A stretch of DNA of 21,330 nucleotides from a virus, in the IMG/VR virus record IMGVR_UViG_3300009154_000331, positions 1 through 21,330 of that record; one strand, 5' to 3'. The position numbers and the translations under genes were made by a program. Below the pieces are notes generated by a model that saw only the letters and a program-made list of their open reading frames with translations, searched no databases and was not told the DNA's origin. The number at the start of each line of letters is the position of its first letter. Position 1 is the first letter of the stretch. Below, piece after piece: positions 9,232-20,384 of the stretch.

Positions 9232-10455
9232 ATGCCTGGTGCTCGTCACGAATGGCCGGACGTCGACACGGTCGCTGAGATCGTTGCTCAGGCCTCGAGT
9301 TGGGAAGAGGTCGCGGAACGCATGGGCAAGCCGCGTTCAACGGTTCAGGCGTTCTGTCGCCGGCACAAGATCGCGGCGCCGAGCACAAGTAAGGAACGCA
9401 GTTTCGCGTTTGACTCGACCGTGGACGTGCCTGACGAGGCGGAGCTTGGGAAGGTGCGCGAGCTAATTGTCGAGGAGGGCTTGAACCCCGACGAGTGGAT
9501 TGTCAGTCGCATACGGTTGAACAGGTACGGCGATCAAGAGCAACGTCGCGTTGATTTGACGCCCCGTGAGGACGTCTTGTTGCCCGTTCGGTCGGATGGG
9601 TGGCGTCCGCCTCGCAAGGCGCGTGTGAAGCCGTCAGAGGGCCGTGTGGGCTTGTTTCCCGATCAGCACGCCCCGTTCCATGACCCGTTGGTTCACGAGG
9701 CCGCGTGCCAGTGGATCAGGGATGCGAAACCGAGCAAGATCGTGTGCCTCGGGGACCTCACCGACAACCCGTCAGTGAGCCGGCATCGCCGGACCGGGCA
9801 TGAACCGTCGCTGCGCGAATGTATGCAGGGCGGCTATGACGTGCTGCGCGGCTATTGCGAGGCGATTGTCGAGGCTGGCATGACCGTCGGGCCCGACGGG
9901 TGCGAAGTGATCTTGCTGCCCGGCAATCACGACGAGGAGCGCATAAGGAACACGCTGGCGGACAAGGGCCTGTCCGAGATCGCGAACTTGACGCAGGTCG
10001 GGTCCGACATTCCGATTCATTCGCTTGAGCACATCATGCGTTTGGACGAGCTGGGCGTTCAGGTGCAGCGCCCACCAGCTGGGTACGGGTATCAGCACGC
10101 CGAGTACAGGGTCACACCGAACCTGCTTGCGGTTCACGGGTGGGTCGCGAAGAAGGGCAGTGGCGCGAGTGCGTTGGCGACGCTCGACAAGGTCAACGAG
10201 AACGTCGCCCAGGGCCACACGCACCGTCAAGCGCTCGTGTTTCACACAAGGTGGATTGGTGGCCGGCCGCAGTTGTTGACCGCTGTCGAGGCCGGAACAA
10301 TGGCGTTGATGGAGCAGAGCGCCCTGGGCTACGCCAATAGACCGGACTGGCAAAGCGGCTGGTGCGTCATGGAAGACCACGGTGACGGGGTCACGTTCGA
10401 CTTTGCAACGAAGGACGGGGATCGCGTCAGGTGGCGCGACGCCAGCTACGAATGA
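9232..10455 (+). CDS. Calcineurin-like metallophosphoesterase with N-terminal HTH
   Basis: 407 residues from ATG 9232, which has GGAG six bases upstream. A TTG at 9160 would extend the frame but lies in the T-tail of the terminator, so it is not preferred. Residues about 12-48 look like a helix-turn-helix (WEEVAERMGKPRSTVQAFCR). The catalytic metal-binding set is complete: Asp144/His146 (FPDQHAPFH), Asp175 (CLGDLTDN), Asn232/His233 (LPGNHDEER), His302 (AVHGW) and His329/His331 (AQGHTHR). It should hydrolyse phosphoester bonds; the substrate is unknown. Phages often carry such enzymes near replication genes, and the HTH suggests nucleic-acid contact. The next gene starts immediately after its stop. 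Confidence 0.85.
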   Translation: MPGARHEWPDVDTVAEIVAQASSWEEVAERMGKPRSTVQAFCRRHKIAAPSTSKERSFAFDSTVDVPDEAELGKVRELIVEEGLNPDEWIVSRIRLNRYGDQEQRRVDLTPREDVLLPVRSDGWRPPRKARVKPSEGRVGLFPDQHAPFHDPLVHEAACQWIRDAKPSKIVCLGDLTDNPSVSRHRRTGHEPSLRECMQGGYDVLRGYCEAIVEAGMTVGPDGCEVILLPGNHDEERIRNTLADKGLSEIANLTQVGSDIPIHSLEHIMRLDELGVQVQRPPAGYGYQHAEYRVTPNLLAVHGWVAKKGSGASALATLDKVNENVAQGHTHRQALVFHTRWIGGRPQLLTAVEAGTMALMEQSALGYANRPDWQSGWCVMEDHGDGVTFDFATKDGDRVRWRDASYE

Positions 10456-11015: not shown

Positions 11016-11210
11016 ATGATCGACTGGGAGACGGAAACATGGAAAGTCGGAATGCTCATCGACCGCGCGGCACAAACCCTGCCATCAGGCGACCCTGACC
11101 GCGATCTACTCGAACGCTTGTCTAACGCTTTGGCTCGAGCAAACGAGCTACGCGACGAGCAATCAGCGGTGCCAATCGCTCAGCGAGTCGGTCTAGTTCC
11201 TCGTCCGTAA
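11016..11210 (+). CDS. Possible small hypothetical protein overlapping repressor end
   Basis: 64 residues from ATG 11016. The first part reads like a real protein, with helices WKVGMLIDRAAQTLPSGD and RDLLERLSNALARANELRDE. Its last 89 bp overlap the 3' end of the minus-strand repressor gene, and no strong Shine-Dalgarno sequence precedes it, so it could be a chance frame. A candidate promoter (10886-10914) lies upstream on the same strand. If real, convergent transcription with the repressor could give mutual interference. No function can be assigned. Confidence 0.3.
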   Translation: MIDWETETWKVGMLIDRAAQTLPSGDPDRDLLERLSNALARANELRDEQSAVPIAQRVGLVPRP

Positions 11211-11454
11211 ACCGCTCGTCAACGGGCGTGTCACTGACCAGGTCGTAGAGATCGCGCAAGTCGACGCTGAAGCCTTCAGCGATCCTGCGTAGCGTTGCTG
11301 GCTGAGCTCGCGTGTTCCTGCGCTCAAGGTTCTCCCACGTCTTGAAGCTGATGCCCGCTACGTGAGCTGCTTCGGCTTGCGTTAGCGGCCCGCGTAACGC
11401 CTTCAATTTCGCTGCGAGCTTCGTGCTACCGGGCTTAGGGGGGGGTTGAGCCAT
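11122..11454 (-). CDS. XRE-type phage repressor
   Basis: 110 residues on the minus strand, starting MAQPPPKPGSTKLAAKLKAL. An in-frame ATG at 11502 would add 16 residues; neither start has a clear Shine-Dalgarno sequence, so leaderless translation is possible. Residues about 13-66 form an HTH_XRE domain (LTQAEAAHVAGISFKTWENL, then RRIAEGFSVDLRDLYDL). The C-terminus is a charged helix (DEELDRLAERLAPLIARRVA) that may dimerise; no RecA-triggered peptidase domain is present. It is the only convincing leftward gene and faces the early promoter across a short divergent region, which fits an immunity repressor. Codons 4-6 contain a run of eight C, a possible slippage site. Confidence 0.8.
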   Translation of the reverse strand: MAQPPPKPGSTKLAAKLKALRGPLTQAEAAHVAGISFKTWENLERRNTRAQPATLRRIAEGFSVDLRDLYDLVSDTPVDERFTDEELDRLAERLAPLIARRVARLLEPKR

Positions 11455-11540
11455 TGAGGGAGCGTACCGCCCCCCCGAACTTGTAGGAAGGAGAAAGCCC
11501 ATTCATGTGGAAACTGCGCAACGTGCGGCAAGAAAGCCGT

Positions 11541-13577: not shown

Positions 13578-13828
13578 ACAACGAGTTCGACCATTTGCCC
13601 GGTAGCTCGAAGGGCACTTGGGTTGAGCAGGCCCGGCGTGCGCGTGAAGCCGGGAGGCATTACCGCAGACGGTGTCGCGCCCTGTCGTTTCAGTTGGACA
13701 TCGCTGAGAAGCGCTGCAAGGCGTTGGAGCGCGAGAACGCGTTACTTGAGGCGCAGGTCGAAGTTTTGGAGCTGACCATTGAGGGAATGCGCCGCACTGG
13801 CGGCCGGCCACGAGAGGACGCAGTCTGA
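13574..13828 (+). CDS. Small coiled-coil protein
   Basis: 84 residues from ATG 13574, overlapping the previous stop (ATGA); an in-frame ATG at 13475 lies inside the upstream gene. It has a basic first half (EQARRAREAGRHYRRRCRAL), then a clear leucine-patterned coiled coil (AEKRCKALERENALLEAQVE, VLELTIEGMR). It probably oligomerises and could be an accessory replication factor, given that the next gene is a replication initiator. No family is recognised. Confidence 0.6.
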   Translation: MNNEFDHLPGSSKGTWVEQARRAREAGRHYRRRCRALSFQLDIAEKRCKALERENALLEAQVEVLELTIEGMRRTGGRPREDAV

Positions 13829-14349
13829 TGGCCTGGTTCCGCGCCGACGATCGCATCTGCGAGCACCCGAAGTTCATCGCTGCTCGAGCACGTGGCGGTC
13901 ATTCCGCCCTGGGCGTCTGGTTCCACGCTGGAACGTGGTCGAACGCGATGCAGACCGACGGGTTCATTCCGAACACGTGGGTGATGCTCAACCGCGCCGA
14001 GACCGAAGCGGCAGTGCTCGCGGAGGTCGGGTTGTGGCATGAGGACGCGTCGCGTGATGGGTGGCAGATGCACGACTACGCCGAGTACCAGCCCACGAAA
14101 GCGGAGCTGGATGCGAAGCGTGAGAAGGACTTGGAGCGCAAGCGGCGTGGTGGTTCCACGAGTGCGACGAAGCGTTCCGCGCGGAATCCGAACGGAATCC
14201 AAACGGAAGTTTCAAGTCCCGTACCCGTACCCGAACCCGTCACACCACTTCGTGGTGTGAAGCGCGGCGCACGTCTTTCAGAGAAGGAGATTCGGACCAG
14301 ACAACGACTCGGCCTCGATGCCGAAGGACCAGGAGGAACAGCAGCATGA
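13828..14349 (+). CDS. Replication initiator-like protein (O/DnaD-type)
   Basis: 173 residues from ATG 13828 (TGATG overlap). The N-terminal domain, about residues 1-90, has the familiar phage replication pattern: MAWFRADDRICEHPKFIAAR, then ALGVWFHAGTW, TDGFIPNTWV and a late WQMHDYAEYQPTKAE. It is probably winged-helix and origin-binding. A basic linker (EKDLERKRRGGSTSATKRSA) follows, then a low-complexity VPVPEPV stretch. The linker DNA carries ordered repeats (14175-14260) resembling the lambda arrangement where ori lies inside gene O. It presumably binds the origin and recruits host helicase through later genes. Confidence 0.65.
   Translation: MAWFRADDRICEHPKFIAARARGGHSALGVWFHAGTWSNAMQTDGFIPNTWVMLNRAETEAAVLAEVGLWHEDASRDGWQMHDYAEYQPTKAELDAKREKDLERKRRGGSTSATKRSARNPNGIQTEVSSPVPVPEPVTPLRGVKRGARLSEKEIRTRQRLGLDAEGPGGTAA
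14175..14260. repeat. Repeat cluster, candidate replication origin
   Basis: Inside the initiator gene: a 12-bp palindrome TTCCGCGCGGAA at 14175-14186; GGAA phased exactly every 11 bp at 14183, 14194 and 14205, the first two within CGGAATCC; a GTACCC/GTACCC/GAACCC hexamer series at about 14221-14238; and a hairpin TCACACCAC/GTGGTGTGA at 14240-14260 with a 3-nt loop. The phasing resembles initiator binding sites. An AT-rich unwinding region was not seen. Confidence 0.45.
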
Positions 14350-15620: not shown

Positions 15621-16376
15621 ATGGACCAATACATGATGATCGGCTTGACCGCCGAACGCGTCAACGAACTTGAGGCGGTCAGGATCGCCGACGAGAACCG
15701 AGTCAGGTCAATCACGCAAGCTGCCGACGCTCGAGAAGCAACACTTGATCACATCGTCGCGGTAAAGGACGGTATCGCCGACCTCGAAACGAAAGCGATA
15801 AAGCAGCTAGAACGGGAACTCAAAAACTTGCCCGCCACCTACCAGTGGGTCAGTGAAACACCCGGCCTCGGAGCGAAGACCGTCGGTCGTCTGATCGGGG
15901 CTCTTGGTAACCCCGCATGGAACTTCATGCACGACCGCCAGCGTCGCGGCCCCGCCGAACTTTGGGCGTACATGGGCCTGCATGTCGTCGAAGGTCAGGC
16001 ACCTCGTCGCAGGCGTGGTGAGCGCGCGAACTGGAGCACCGAAGCAAAGACACGAGCGTTCCTGTGCGCCGAAGGGTGCGTGAAAGCAGTCGGTGGCGAA
16101 ACTAAGTCGGGGGCCGTCAGGAAACGCAGCCCTTATCGCGACGTCTATGACGCCGCACGAGAGAAGCACGCCGAGGCCGTGCACACCACCGATTGCGTGA
16201 GGTGCGGCCCGAGCGGAAAGCCAGCACAGCCCGGATCGCCGCTTGCCGACGGCCATAAGCACGCTCGAGCGATGCGCGAAGTGATGAAGGCCATTACCCG
16301 CGACCTGTTCCTCGCGTCGCGTGACGACAACGAGCGGTTTGAGCGTGCGATGTACGCAAGGGACGACCGGAGCTGA
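15621..16376 (+). CDS. IS110-transposase C-terminal-domain protein lacking the RuvC-like domain
   Basis: 251 residues from ATG 15621, with AGGAGG seven bases upstream. Residues about 8-70 are coiled coil. Residues about 78-180 resemble the Transposase_20 domain of IS110/IS1111 proteins: a helix-hairpin-helix-like ETPGLGAKTVGRLIGALGN, then AELWAYMGLH, a basic patch APRRRRGERANWSTEAKTRA and SPYRDVYDAAREKHAEA. The N-terminal DEDD (RuvC-like) domain of IS110 is absent, and where family members usually have Ser-Gly after the AGL motif this protein has Glu124-Gly125, so the conserved serine seems missing. It therefore probably binds DNA or RNA without recombining it. Cys192 and Cys195 (CVRC) may bind zinc. 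A domesticated phage function is inferred. Confidence 0.6.
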   Translation: MDQYMMIGLTAERVNELEAVRIADENRVRSITQAADAREATLDHIVAVKDGIADLETKAIKQLERELKNLPATYQWVSETPGLGAKTVGRLIGALGNPAWNFMHDRQRRGPAELWAYMGLHVVEGQAPRRRRGERANWSTEAKTRAFLCAEGCVKAVGGETKSGAVRKRSPYRDVYDAAREKHAEAVHTTDCVRCGPSGKPAQPGSPLADGHKHARAMREVMKAITRDLFLASRDDNERFERAMYARDDRS

Positions 16377-17973: not shown

Positions 17974-18203
17974 GCACGATTACGCTCCCGGCCCCGCACT
18001 CATTTTGGCGAGCTGACAACGGGCGCATCATCATGGTCACCGGCTACCACGTCGAGCCGTCCCGGCACGGTCGCAAGCCAACAACCCTCGTGCACTTTCG
18101 CTACGGCGCGAAGGCGTGGGAAGTGTCCTCAGCGCACTCGAAGGTCTGGGATTCCGAGTTTGAGCCCGCCGAGTGGGATGAGTTCCAAGAGGTGGGCGCG
18201 TGA
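17970..18203 (+). CDS. Small beta-rich hypothetical protein
   Basis: 77 residues from GTG 17970 (GTGA overlap). The sequence suggests a compact beta protein: HSFWRADNGRIIMVTGYHVE, TLVHFRYGAKAWEVSSAHS, then an acidic helix (EPAEWDEFQEVGA). No transmembrane or catalytic motif is seen. It immediately precedes the excisionase-like gene and is probably cotranslated with it. Function unknown. Confidence 0.5.
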   Translation: MSTITLPAPHSFWRADNGRIIMVTGYHVEPSRHGRKPTTLVHFRYGAKAWEVSSAHSKVWDSEFEPAEWDEFQEVGA

Positions 18204-18430
18204 GCGCAACCGTCCACAACCTCGCGGACGCACGCCGACCAACGTCAACGATCGACTGGAACGAACCACTCGTGACCAAGTCCCAGTTAGCCGATCACCT
18301 CGGGTTCAGTACCCGCTGGGTCGAGTTGCGTGTCGCGGAAGGTCTGCCGCACTACCGAGTCGGGGGTAGGCTCAGATTTCACAAGAGCCAAGCGACCAGG
18401 TGGCTCGTGGACAGGGAGGATCACCAGTGA
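18200..18430 (+). CDS. xis: Excisionase-like HTH protein (RDF)
   Basis: 76 residues from GTG 18200 (GTGA overlap). Residues about 25-70 form a MerR/excisionase-type winged helix: VTKSQLADHLGFSTRWVELR, then VAEGLPHYRVGGRLRFHKSQ and ATRWLVD. The pattern matches small recombination directionality factors, and the gene directly overlaps the integrase start, the usual place for Xis. It should bind and bend attachment-site DNA to favour excision. A purely regulatory role is possible but less likely given context. Confidence 0.7.
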   Translation: MSATVHNLADARRPTSTIDWNEPLVTKSQLADHLGFSTRWVELRVAEGLPHYRVGGRLRFHKSQATRWLVDREDHQ

Positions 18431-19464
18431 GCGTGTTCAAGAACGAGCGGGGCAAGTGGATCGTGCAGGTCTACGACGGTGCGACCCGCAGGATGCGGCA
18501 CGTCGGGACGTACCCGACGAAGCGTGAGGCACTTGACGCCGAGCACAGGAACCGCGCGTTGGGCCCAGCGTCGAGCGTGACCGTCGCTGACTTCGCCGAC
18601 AGATGGATGATCGACTACCCACGCCCGAAAGCCAGCACCCGCAAACACAACACGGAGCGCGTCCGGCAGTTCTCGGAGACGTATGGCAACCGTCGCCTCG
18701 CGATGATCGACCGCCGGACCGCGAGGGCGTGGGCGTTGGAGCACCCCGGCGAACTGTCGGCACTCAGGGCGATGTTCTCGGACGCGTTGAACGACGACCT
18801 TGTGCACACCAACCCGTTCGCGAACCTCGGGCTCAGGCAGAAGCGAGCGAAGCGCGACCTGCAACCCGACTGGCTCAAGGAAAGCGACGTGCTCACGCTC
18901 GCTGACATTGCCCTCGAGGTGCACGATCAGGTGACTGGCCGCATGGTCAAGGCCGCAATCCTCACTAGTGCCTACACGGGCGTCAGGCCCGGTGAACTCT
19001 TTGCTCTTGAGCACCGTGACGTGCTGGACGGCGAGCTGTGGGTCACGAAGGCGTTCAGCTCAAGCACGAAGGAACTTGGGCCACCAAAGAACGGCAAGCC
19101 TCGCCGCATCGTCCTGCCGCGTGTCGCACAGGCCGCGATCGAAAACACGATGCCCTTGCATGACTCACTTGTGTTCACGAGCCCGTCCGGCCGGCAGTTG
19201 TACCTGAGTGCCTGGCACAACCTTTGGAACCCCGTCAGGCAAGCGTTCAAGTCACGATCGGGCCACGAGGGCAAGCTCGCGTATTACGAGCTGCGGCATT
19301 GGGCTGCGACGCACATGATCCAACTTGGCCTCAGCCCGAGTGATGTTGGTTATCAGCTCGGTCATGTCGACGGCATCCTCGTCATGAACACGTATTCCCA
19401 TCCGTCGGAGGAGCAGGCACGTGAGCGCATCCGGCAAGCGTTGGACAATAGGAATGCAGCATGA
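18427..19464 (+). CDS. int: Tyrosine site-specific integrase
   Basis: 345 residues from GTG 18427 (GTGA overlap). Residues about 1-45 form an arm-type DNA-binding beta domain (VFKNERGKWIVQVYDG, HVGTYPTKREAL). About 52-130 is the core-binding helical domain. The catalytic domain follows, with Arg187 in TGVRPGE, a lysine near 221-224 (PPKNGKPRR), Arg290 in YYELRHW, His313 in LGHVDG and nucleophile Tyr323 in NTYSHP. The usual His of the HxxR box is Tyr287 here, a tolerated variation. The arm domain predicts arm-type sites in attP; candidate repeats lie 220-470 bp downstream. Confidence 0.95.
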   Translation: MSVFKNERGKWIVQVYDGATRRMRHVGTYPTKREALDAEHRNRALGPASSVTVADFADRWMIDYPRPKASTRKHNTERVRQFSETYGNRRLAMIDRRTARAWALEHPGELSALRAMFSDALNDDLVHTNPFANLGLRQKRAKRDLQPDWLKESDVLTLADIALEVHDQVTGRMVKAAILTSAYTGVRPGELFALEHRDVLDGELWVTKAFSSSTKELGPPKNGKPRRIVLPRVAQAAIENTMPLHDSLVFTSPSGRQLYLSAWHNLWNPVRQAFKSRSGHEGKLAYYELRHWAATHMIQLGLSPSDVGYQLGHVDGILVMNTYSHPSEEQARERIRQALDNRNAA

Positions 19465-19730
19465 GTGACTATCGCAGCCATGACTTCAAGGTGGGGCATT
19501 GCGAGTGCTTCGTTGAAGCGTGGGACGCGGACGAGCGCGACCCTGCCGGACTGATGATTCATTACGCGCTGCCCGCAACTGCGGAAAGCCCATCGCATGG
19601 CAATGCTTGGATCGAGGACGACGTTGCAGGGTTTCGCATGCTGGCACACAAGATCCTCGCGGCGTGCGATGCACTCGAAGCTGGCGGACCACACACAAAC
19701 CACACACGGGACGCTTCAGAAGCCCAGTAG
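19461..19730 (+). CDS. Small acidic hypothetical protein after int
   Basis: 89 residues from ATG 19461, overlapping the integrase stop (ATGA). It is acidic with His, Cys and Trp residues near the N-terminus (FKVGHCECFVEAWDADERDP), a central helical part (VAGFRMLAHKILAACDALEA) and a short tail. The tail (GGPHTNHTR) is encoded by the first of the CCACACAC repeats, so its last residues may reflect DNA-site constraint rather than protein function. No family is recognised. Confidence 0.5.
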   Translation: MSDYRSHDFKVGHCECFVEAWDADERDPAGLMIHYALPATAESPSHGNAWIEDDVAGFRMLAHKILAACDALEAGGPHTNHTRDASEAQ

Positions 19731-19935
19731 CTTCGTGAACTTTCGCACCTGATGAAAGACTCTCCCCGACTAGTTCAAAACCTGCGAAGCGACGCGCAGA
19801 AGCGCGAAGCTCGCAGGGCATTCGGAGCGTCGAGTGCACACACGCCGTATGTGGATTGTGTGGTCGAACCGGCTGGTTTCGCGGCGGACCACACACAGAC
19901 CACACACGCGACGGGCCCGAAACCACACACGCCCA
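19683..19935. other. Candidate attP arm region downstream of int
   Basis: A 31-bp segment (19683-19713) recurs at 19883-19913 with two mismatches, exactly 200 bp apart. Each copy holds two ACCACACAC units. A related inverted unit lies at about 19848-19866 and a further ACCACACAC at about 19921-19929. The copies fall in different reading frames of the two genes they overlap, so selection acts on DNA. Between them CTTTC (19740-19744) and GAAAG (19754-19758) form an inverted pair with a 9-bp spacer that could be core sites. Confidence 0.45.
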
Positions 19936-20384
19936 GCGACGCGACATCAACGCTGGGCCGCCAACTCGACGAGCGCATCAGGCTCAGGCTCGCGCAGCTT
20001 GAGGTGCTACCCGGCCCCGTGAGCGGGAAGGGCGTTGAGCAGTCATCGCAGGGCGTGGAGCGTGCGTTGCCCGTCTCATTGTCTGGCAAGGCAAAAGGCG
20101 TCGATCGCGAAACGGACGTGTTCGTGTTCCGCATCAGGATCAGTCGAGCAAAGAGCATTCCGGCGAAGGTCGCGGTGTTGCGTTCGTTGAACGACGCGAT
20201 CGCGACGATCACGGTATCGAAGCGTAAGGGCCGCCCGGAGTTCGACCTGTCGGTGAAAGAGGGCCGCATTGCAGCAGGACGGCTCAGTGAGACTCACGGC
20301 GTCAGGTGGGCGTGTGAGGCATTGGGTGGCGTGCCGGAGCGCACAATGCGCAGGTACCGCGACGAGTACCGCAGGGCCGCATGA
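19752..20384 (+). CDS. Hypothetical protein with Thr/His-rich N-terminus
   Basis: 210 residues from ATG 19752, although no Shine-Dalgarno sequence precedes it and the first 70 residues cover the repeat region, so the true start may be further in. The C-terminal 140 residues look like folded protein: strands and helices in VDRETDVFVFRIRISRAKSI, PAKVAVLRSLNDAIATITVS and FDLSVKEGRIAAGRLSETHG, then a basic end (PERTMRRYRDEYRRAA) that may be an HTH. No family is recognised. The stop overlaps the secreted protein that follows. Confidence 0.5.
   Translation: MKDSPRLVQNLRSDAQKREARRAFGASSAHTPYVDCVVEPAGFAADHTQTTHATGPKPHTPSDATSTLGRQLDERIRLRLAQLEVLPGPVSGKGVEQSSQGVERALPVSLSGKAKGVDRETDVFVFRIRISRAKSIPAKVAVLRSLNDAIATITVSKRKGRPEFDLSVKEGRIAAGRLSETHGVRWACEALGGVPERTMRRYRDEYRRAA

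What the first reader, a model, noticed from the sequence alone, without database searches (positions are those of the whole stretch)
19683..19935. 31-bp repeats exactly 200 bp apart, conserved in different reading frames
The two copies fall in different frames of the two genes they overlap, so the shared sequence cannot be a protein constraint. Related inverted and partial units lie nearby. The integrase has an N-terminal arm-binding domain, and the repeats lie just downstream of int, so arm sites of attP are the simplest reading. The small inverted CTTTC/GAAAG pair between them is a core candidate.
Basis: partly seen in the sequence, partly recalled or inferred. Interest (0 to 1): 0.6.

Follow-up and report, generated by a model that had tools for sequence, protein, structure and literature searches.

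The report
Phage integration site beside integrase gene
The repeats are most likely the docking sites where this bacterial virus's integrase grips its own DNA (attP) to insert into the end of a host proline tRNA gene: a complete example of a known kind of site, with its likely target gene and host group now proposed.

Summary
GGCGGACCACACACARACCACACACGSGACG occurs at 19683 and 19883 (29/31 identical, exactly 200 bp apart, different frames). All six ACCACACA octamers of the 21-kb window lie in 19688-19929. The unit is not 31 bp: it is two 9-bp sites one helical turn (11 bp) apart.

Best reading: a complete attP of a lambda-type tyrosine integrase. The P arm has one direct pair. The P' arm has an inverted pair, a direct pair and a single site. 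The key evidence is integrated relatives of the same xis-int module (Int 33-43%, Xis 44-55% identical) in Solirubrobacterales-type genomes, at tmRNA, tRNA-Val or tRNA-Pro. With other repeat sequences, their P' arms carry the same direct triple at +118-123, +11 and +34 from the core; P-arm pairs lie near -80 or -105.

The core, in register with the relatives, is TCTCCCCGACTAGTT (19761-19775), identical to the 3' end of tRNA-Pro(GGG) in a genome of that order, so attB is probably tRNA-Pro. A decayed relative at tRNA-Pro has the same layout. No integrated copy of this phage was found and Int binding is untested. New member of a known kind.

The parts
18200..18430 (+). Xis-like small helix-turn-helix protein (candidate recombination directionality factor), overlapping int by 4 bp
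   Evidence: HTH_17 E=5e-4 but below the curated cut-off; excisionase families E=2e-4 to 3e-3. 44-55% identical small proteins sit directly upstream of int in L091, L093, L099, L103, L108.
18427..19464 (+). Tyrosine integrase, 345 aa
   Evidence: Pfam PF00589 E=1.8e-12; PHROG integrase E=4e-49; relatives 33-43% identical in actinobacterial MAGs; AlphaFold model with N-terminal 3-stranded sheet plus helix, best Foldseek matches Tn1549 Int and lambda Int.
19683..19713 (+).
   Evidence: offset-11 pair at -83/-82 from the core, as at -80 to -78 in G005 and -80 in G250.
19741..19756 (+).
   Evidence: 14/16 identical to the attR of G005a (TTTCGCACCTACTGAA), with close forms in G005b, G006 and G006c at the same distance from the core.
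19761..19775 (+). Core shared with attB: TCTCCCCGACTAGTT; inferred 7-bp overlap 19762-19768 (CTCCCCG = 3' acceptor strand of tRNA-Pro)
   Evidence: 15 bp identical to the 3' end and flank of tRNA-Pro(GGG) in G052, 13 bp in G002; next best of 89 tRNA genes is 10 bp. Same register as the tmRNA 3' end in the relatives' attR.
19782..19789 (+). CTGCGAAG, conserved right-hand flank (GCGAA at +14); role unassigned (core-type, Xis or accessory site)
   Evidence: GCGAA at +15 or +16 in G002, G003, G005, G006 and again at about +25, +68, +78 in G003, G005, G006.
19847..19864 (-). P'-arm inverted pair (ACCACACAA 19864-19856; TCCACATAC 19855-19847)
   Evidence: G002 has an inverted GCGACC pair at about +58 to +67 of its P' arm.
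19883..19913 (+).
19922..19930 (+). P'-arm single site, +152 from the core
19752..20384 (+). ORF of unknown function whose first ~60 codons are overlapped by the core and P' arm; true start may lie downstream
   Evidence: no family match.

Best explanation
19683-19935 is the complete attP of a temperate actinophage with a lambda-type (two-domain, heterobivalent) tyrosine integrase. Int would bind the ACCACACAC sites with its N-terminal domain: a pair on the P arm, and an inverted pair, a direct pair and a single on the P' arm. It would bind the core with its C-terminal domains, the DNA being bent so that both are held at once. It would then exchange strands across about 7 bp (CTCCCCG, 19762-19768) with the identical 3' end of a host tRNA-Pro(GGG) gene. 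Because the core carries the end of the tRNA, the gene is rebuilt at attL. The Xis-like protein encoded just upstream of int would direct excision. Shown here: repeats, layout, homology of the module to integrated elements, their att junctions and tRNA identity of the core. Inferred: Int binding, exact overlap, Xis role, bending factor, host.
For: (1) Repeats and clustering. (2) xis-int module with relatives in Solirubrobacterales-type MAGs. (3) Their attR lies just downstream of int, and in G002, G005, G006 the tmRNA 3' end is followed by repeats (attL). (4) Direct triple at +118-123, +11, +34 in the P' arms of the window, G002, G003, G005 and G006, with unlike sequences, 0 of 500 shuffles each. 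(5) P-arm pair at -82 (window), -78 (G005, two copies), -80 (G250), about -103 to -107 (G006, two sites). (6) Core in register with a tRNA 3' end; 15 bp identical to tRNA-Pro(GGG), best of 89 tRNAs. (7) A decayed 0.85-kb element at tRNA-Pro in G250 keeps a frame ending like this Int family's tail (YGHPSE), a GGGAGCAG pair at -80 and a TCGGGAGC pair at +116/+127. (8) N-terminal sheet-plus-helix in the Int model.
Against: No integrated copy, attL or attR of this very phage was found in 232 genomes of the order. The viral contig has no host label. Pfam does not call an arm-binding domain in the window's Int. The core match is short: one other place in the window, 9750-9765, matches an antisense tRNA for 16 bp, so length alone is not decisive. 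The two arms overlap predicted frames. G001 and G002 show no clear offset-11 P pair.
Confidence: 0.93

Rival explanations
1. The ACCACACAC repeats bind the Xis-like protein (or another accessory protein) rather than Int; the site is still attP, but the protein assignment is different.
For: Winged-helix proteins of the Xis type can bind head-to-tail direct repeats about one turn apart (BldC/RdfS, PMC11963761); a Xis-like gene is next to int.
Against: The sites lie on both arms far from the core, as arm-type sites do. Their sequence differs between elements while the Xis proteins are the better conserved of the two (44-55% against 33-43% for Int). A second, conserved motif (GCGAA, on the P' side only) is a better Xis candidate.
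Confidence: 0.1
2. Iterons of a replication origin, bound by a phage initiator.
For: Clustered direct repeats next to an orphan ORF; a replication-initiation-like protein is encoded at 13828-14349.
Against: The same layout recurs at attL and attR of integrated elements, split between the two ends by integration, which an origin would not be. The array flanks a tRNA-identical core in register. The initiator-like gene is over 5 kb away.
Confidence: 0.03
3. Operators of a repressor controlling the downstream genes.
For: Repeats overlap the beginning of ORF 19752-20384; a Xre-like regulator frame lies on the minus strand at 11122-11502 (reading of the translation).
Against: No sigma-70-like promoter match in 19400-20100; spacing conserved relative to the att core in relatives.
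Confidence: 0.02
4. attP is correct but the target is not tRNA-Pro: the 15-bp match is chance and the true attB is unknown.
For: 15-16 bp tRNA matches occur at two places in the 21-kb window.
Against: The match is in the exact register predicted from relatives (TGAA + 5 + 7 + A), is 5 bp longer than any other tRNA match in the 300-bp segment, and a decayed relative sits at tRNA-Pro with the same arm spacing.
Confidence: 0.12

Closest known systems
attP of mycobacteriophage Pixie (Subcluster K3; PMC3203893)
   Same: Tyrosine integrase; putative arm-type sites as a pair left of the core and three in direct orientation right of it, plus one inverted site; core overlaps a tRNA gene.
   Different: Core 47 bp at tRNA-Lys; the inverted site is on the left; in the window the core match is about 15 bp at tRNA-Pro and the inverted pair is on the P' arm.
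attP of Cluster K1 mycobacteriophages such as CrimD and Adephagia (PMC3203893)
   Same: Pairs of 11-bp arm-type repeats on each side of the core; tmRNA 3' end as attB, which is also the target of several of the window's relatives.
   Different: Two pairs only, inverted to each other; attP is 5' of int, here it is 3' of int.
Phage lambda attP / Int (PMC4880445)
   Same: Heterobivalent Int, separate core- and arm-type sites on both arms, Xis.
   Different: Lambda attB is not a tRNA gene (general knowledge); arm number and order differ; IHF-like sites not testable here.
Integrated xis-int elements of Solirubrobacterales-type MAGs (L091, L093, L099, L101, L103, L108)
   Same: Int 33-43%, Xis 44-55% identical where aligned; same xis-int order, with att just 3' of int in most; where the P' arm could be read, same arm geometry.
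   Different: Arm-site sequences (GGGTCGCA, GGTAGCA, CGTACGCA) and target genes (tmRNA, tRNA-Val) differ.

Membership tests
attP of a lambda-type (heterobivalent) tyrosine integrase | Adjacent tyrosine recombinase gene with catalytic residues | tested here: met
   PF00589 E=1.8e-12; R187, K221, R290, H313, Y323 invariant among relatives; the usual first His of box II is Tyr in the window and in four of five relatives.
attP of a lambda-type (heterobivalent) tyrosine integrase | Integrase N-terminal arm-binding domain (3-stranded sheet plus helix) | tested here: met
   Model: strands 3-5, 11-17, 22-29 and helix 32-44, block pLDDT about 75-84; Foldseek hits Tn1549 and lambda Int at low TM-scores. 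Pfam gives only sub-threshold Arm-DNA-bind_4 hits in two relatives and none in the window's Int.
attP of a lambda-type (heterobivalent) tyrosine integrase | Repeated arm-type sites on both sides of a core | tested here: met
attP of a lambda-type (heterobivalent) tyrosine integrase | Core identical to a host attB | tested here: met
   15 bp with the tRNA-Pro(GGG) 3' end of G052, 13 bp in G002; the actual host is unknown.
attP of a lambda-type (heterobivalent) tyrosine integrase | Arms split to attL and attR after integration | tested here: inconclusive
   Seen in relatives, not in this phage.
attP of a lambda-type (heterobivalent) tyrosine integrase | Int binds the arm sites and recombines the core | not testable with these tools
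   needs footprinting and an integration assay
Excisionase / RDF gene in the module | Small winged-helix protein beside int | tested here: inconclusive
   Sub-threshold HTH_17 and excisionase hits, but homologs at the same place in five relatives.
Replication-origin iterons | Array independent of integration junctions, near its initiator gene | tested here: not met
   In relatives the array is split across attL and attR.

The most novel reading that the evidence does not exclude
A family of integrative modules in Solirubrobacterales keeps a fixed spatial arrangement of Int arm sites (direct P' pair and single at about +118/+129/+152, P pair near -80 or -105) while the arm sequence and the target gene (tmRNA, tRNA-Val, tRNA-Pro) are both exchanged. 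The geometry would be the conserved part of the code, and arm sequences would co-vary with the Int N-terminal domain.
Probability: 0.6. Interest if true: 0.5.

Novelty: new member of a known kind. Interest (0 to 1): 0.38.

Why it matters
It turns an orphan metagenomic phage contig into one with a predicted integration system, target gene (tRNA-Pro) and host order; no phage closely related to it turned up in the collections searched. It gives a set of homologous attachment sites with unlike arm sequences at equal spacing, useful for asking how integrase N-terminal domains choose their sites. The int-attP segment is a candidate integration tool for Solirubrobacterales.

Tried and rejected
Direct search for relatives of Int in viral contigs and genomes with exact 8-residue patterns found none; the repeat itself, the neighbouring ORF and a box-II pattern in viral contigs found none. 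An alignment-based viral search returned mostly integrases about 20-30% identical. tRNA and Rfam scans of the core were negative, probably because only about 9 nt of the tRNA are carried. The palindrome CCTGCGAAGC...GCTCGCAGG (19781-19817) was considered as core or terminator: the segment folds better than shuffles, but its left part is the conserved CTGCGAAG flank. Symmetry of the whole core about 19765 scores 13/21, reached at 24 places in the window in all, so it is not used as evidence. The G082 stretch at tRNA-Pro has no Int of this family. blastn of the core region against 232 genomes of the order gave only short, chance-level matches. A query with substituted residues to widen the pattern search was considered and not used; a degenerate DNA pattern was used instead.

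Full report
Observation. The two 31-bp copies are real: 29/31 identical, 200 bp apart, in frames 0 and 2 of the two ORFs; the next-best 31-mer pair within 400 bp in the whole window is 22/31. All six ACCACACA octamers of the window fall in 19688-19929 against 0.81 expected. The paired form occurs only at 19688 and 19888. The working unit is a 9-bp site, ACCACACAC, used as a direct pair 11 bp apart (19688/19699), an imperfect inverted pair (19864/19855, minus strand), a second direct pair (19888/19899) and a single (19922).

Surroundings. The window is a 21.3-kb IMG/VR virus record without host. Upstream of the repeats are a small HTH protein (18200-18430) and a 345-aa tyrosine integrase (18427-19464) that overlap by 4 bp. 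No tRNA or Rfam element was found in the interval. Other genes resemble actinophage genes.

Relatives. Exact-peptide searches found no close integrase. A degenerate pattern for the QLGHxDGxxLVM motif found 15 genome loci; L091, L093, L094, L099, L101 and L103 carry full or partial integrases 34-48% identical over the aligned part, and L095 a weak one. A further copy, L108, came from the genome of L103. L093, L094 and L099 lie in MAGs labelled Actinomycetes, L101 Thermoleophilaceae, L103 Solirubrobacteraceae; L091 is in a bin labelled Fimbriimonadaceae, whose contig may be misbinned. G002 to G006 all fall in the same order as G052; I call it Solirubrobacterales from the record titles. Alignment of five of these integrases gives 33-43% identity to the window's Int. 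Small Xis-like proteins 44-55% identical sit directly upstream of int in five loci.

Attachment junctions of relatives. Just downstream of int, G005 (two tandem copies), G006, G002 and G001 carry a sequence ending like the 3' end of tmRNA; G006 has one more such site (C113) whose upstream gene was not examined. In G002, G005 and G006 the host tmRNA gene itself is followed by foreign repeats, i.e. attL. In G001 the tmRNA gene found is intact with CCA and does not show an element, in keeping with a misbinned contig. The attR form TTTCGCACCTnnTGAA-CCCAC-CGTCTCC-A-CT (G005) aligns base for base in register with the window's TTTCGCACCTGATGAA-AGACT-CTCCCCG-A-CT.

Arm geometry. Measured from the base after the core, the best direct triple (i, i+11, i+33 to 35) is at +118/119 in the window, +118 in G005, +120 in G002 and G006, +121 to +123 in G003 (beside tRNA-Val). 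The motifs differ: ACCACACAC, CGGTAGCA, GGGTCGCA, CGTACGC, GTAGCA. None of 500 shuffles of each sequence reached the observed score. P-arm pairs with 11-bp offset lie at -83/-82 in the window (8/8), -78 in both G005 copies (6/8), and about -103 to -107 in the two G006 sites (8/8 and 7/8); G001 and G002 show none that is clear. Equal spacing with unlike sequence, split between the two ends of integrated elements, is what Int arm-type sites do and what iterons or operators do not.

Target. The register predicts that 19762-19769 (CTCCCCG-A) is the acceptor strand and discriminator base of a tRNA starting CGGGGAG. tRNA-Pro(GGG) genes of this bacterial group end exactly so. Against 89 tRNA genes of two genomes, the 300-bp attP segment matches tRNA-Pro(GGG) for 15 bp in G052 (TCTCCCCGACTAGTT) and 13 bp in G002; the next tRNA reaches 10 bp. 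Length alone is weak: a 16-bp antisense tRNA match exists at 9750. The register makes it strong. Eleven of 232 genomes of the order carry CNNTCTCCCCGACTAG, each inside a tRNA-Pro gene or what looks like a copy of its 3' end, so tRNA-Pro seems to be a used integration hotspot. In G250 one such copy and a partial tRNA-Pro bracket 0.85 kb that still holds a frame ending ...YGHPSEAGARARVLAAWD, like the tail of this Int family, a GGGAGCAG pair at -80 (8/8; 6 of 2000 shuffles) and a TCGGGAGC pair at +116/+127 (8/8; triple score reached by 9 of 500 shuffles). That remnant is the nearest thing to a worked example at tRNA-Pro.

Integrase. The AlphaFold model (mean pLDDT 81, pTM 0.60) starts with three strands and a helix followed by core-binding and catalytic regions. 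Foldseek's best matches are Tn1549 Int and full-length lambda Int, at modest TM-scores. Pfam has only sub-threshold arm-domain hits in two relatives, so the domain assignment rests on the model.

Mechanism. Shown: the sites, their layout, the homologous integrated modules, the tRNA identity of the core. Inferred: Int's N-terminal domain binds ACCACACAC, its C-terminal part binds the core, strand exchange spans about CTCCCCG, tRNA-Pro is rebuilt at attL, Xis drives excision. A second motif, GCGAA at +14/+34 in the window and at about +15/+25/+68/+78 in three relatives, is unassigned; Xis or an accessory protein is likely.

Known context. Pixie (K3) has a pair left of the core and three direct sites right of it plus one inverted, at tRNA-Lys; CrimD-type (K1) phages have two pairs of 11-bp sites around a tmRNA core (PMC3203893). 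Lambda supplies the mechanism (PMC4880445). The window is therefore a new member of a known kind. No copy of this phage was found integrated.

Noticed in passing
L101 / G005:C203 4173-6647: Two related integrative elements stand in tandem, each with int and a tmRNA-3'-end att copy; one int copy (near 4165-5074 of L101) is broken by a frame change.
   Followed up: partly
L162, L262-L270 (G052, G232, G774, G361, G339, G799 and others): tRNA-Pro(GGG) of this order looks like a crowded integration site: several truncated 3' copies, some next to other integrases.
   Followed up: partly
window 9750-9765: 16 bp identical to the antisense strand of tRNA-Pro(CGG) of G052 and G002, inside the metallophosphoesterase gene; probably chance.
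   Followed up: no
window 15621-16376: Protein of a 'transposase' family (PHROG 4285) about 44% identical to proteins of many mycobacteriophages, annotated there as transposase or hypothetical.
   Followed up: no
window 18427-19464: The first histidine of integrase box II (HxxR) is a tyrosine (YELRH) here and in four of five relatives.
   Followed up: partly
window 19752-20384: First ~60 codons are att DNA with a repeat-like peptide; the real start is probably downstream.
   Followed up: no
window 11122-11502, minus strand: Xre-like HTH frame (by eye from the translation) on the opposite strand to its neighbours; candidate lysogeny repressor.
   Followed up: no
P' arms of L121, L126, L099: GCGAA motif at about +15, +25, +68, +78 with about 10-bp spacing; candidate Xis or accessory-protein sites.
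   Followed up: partly
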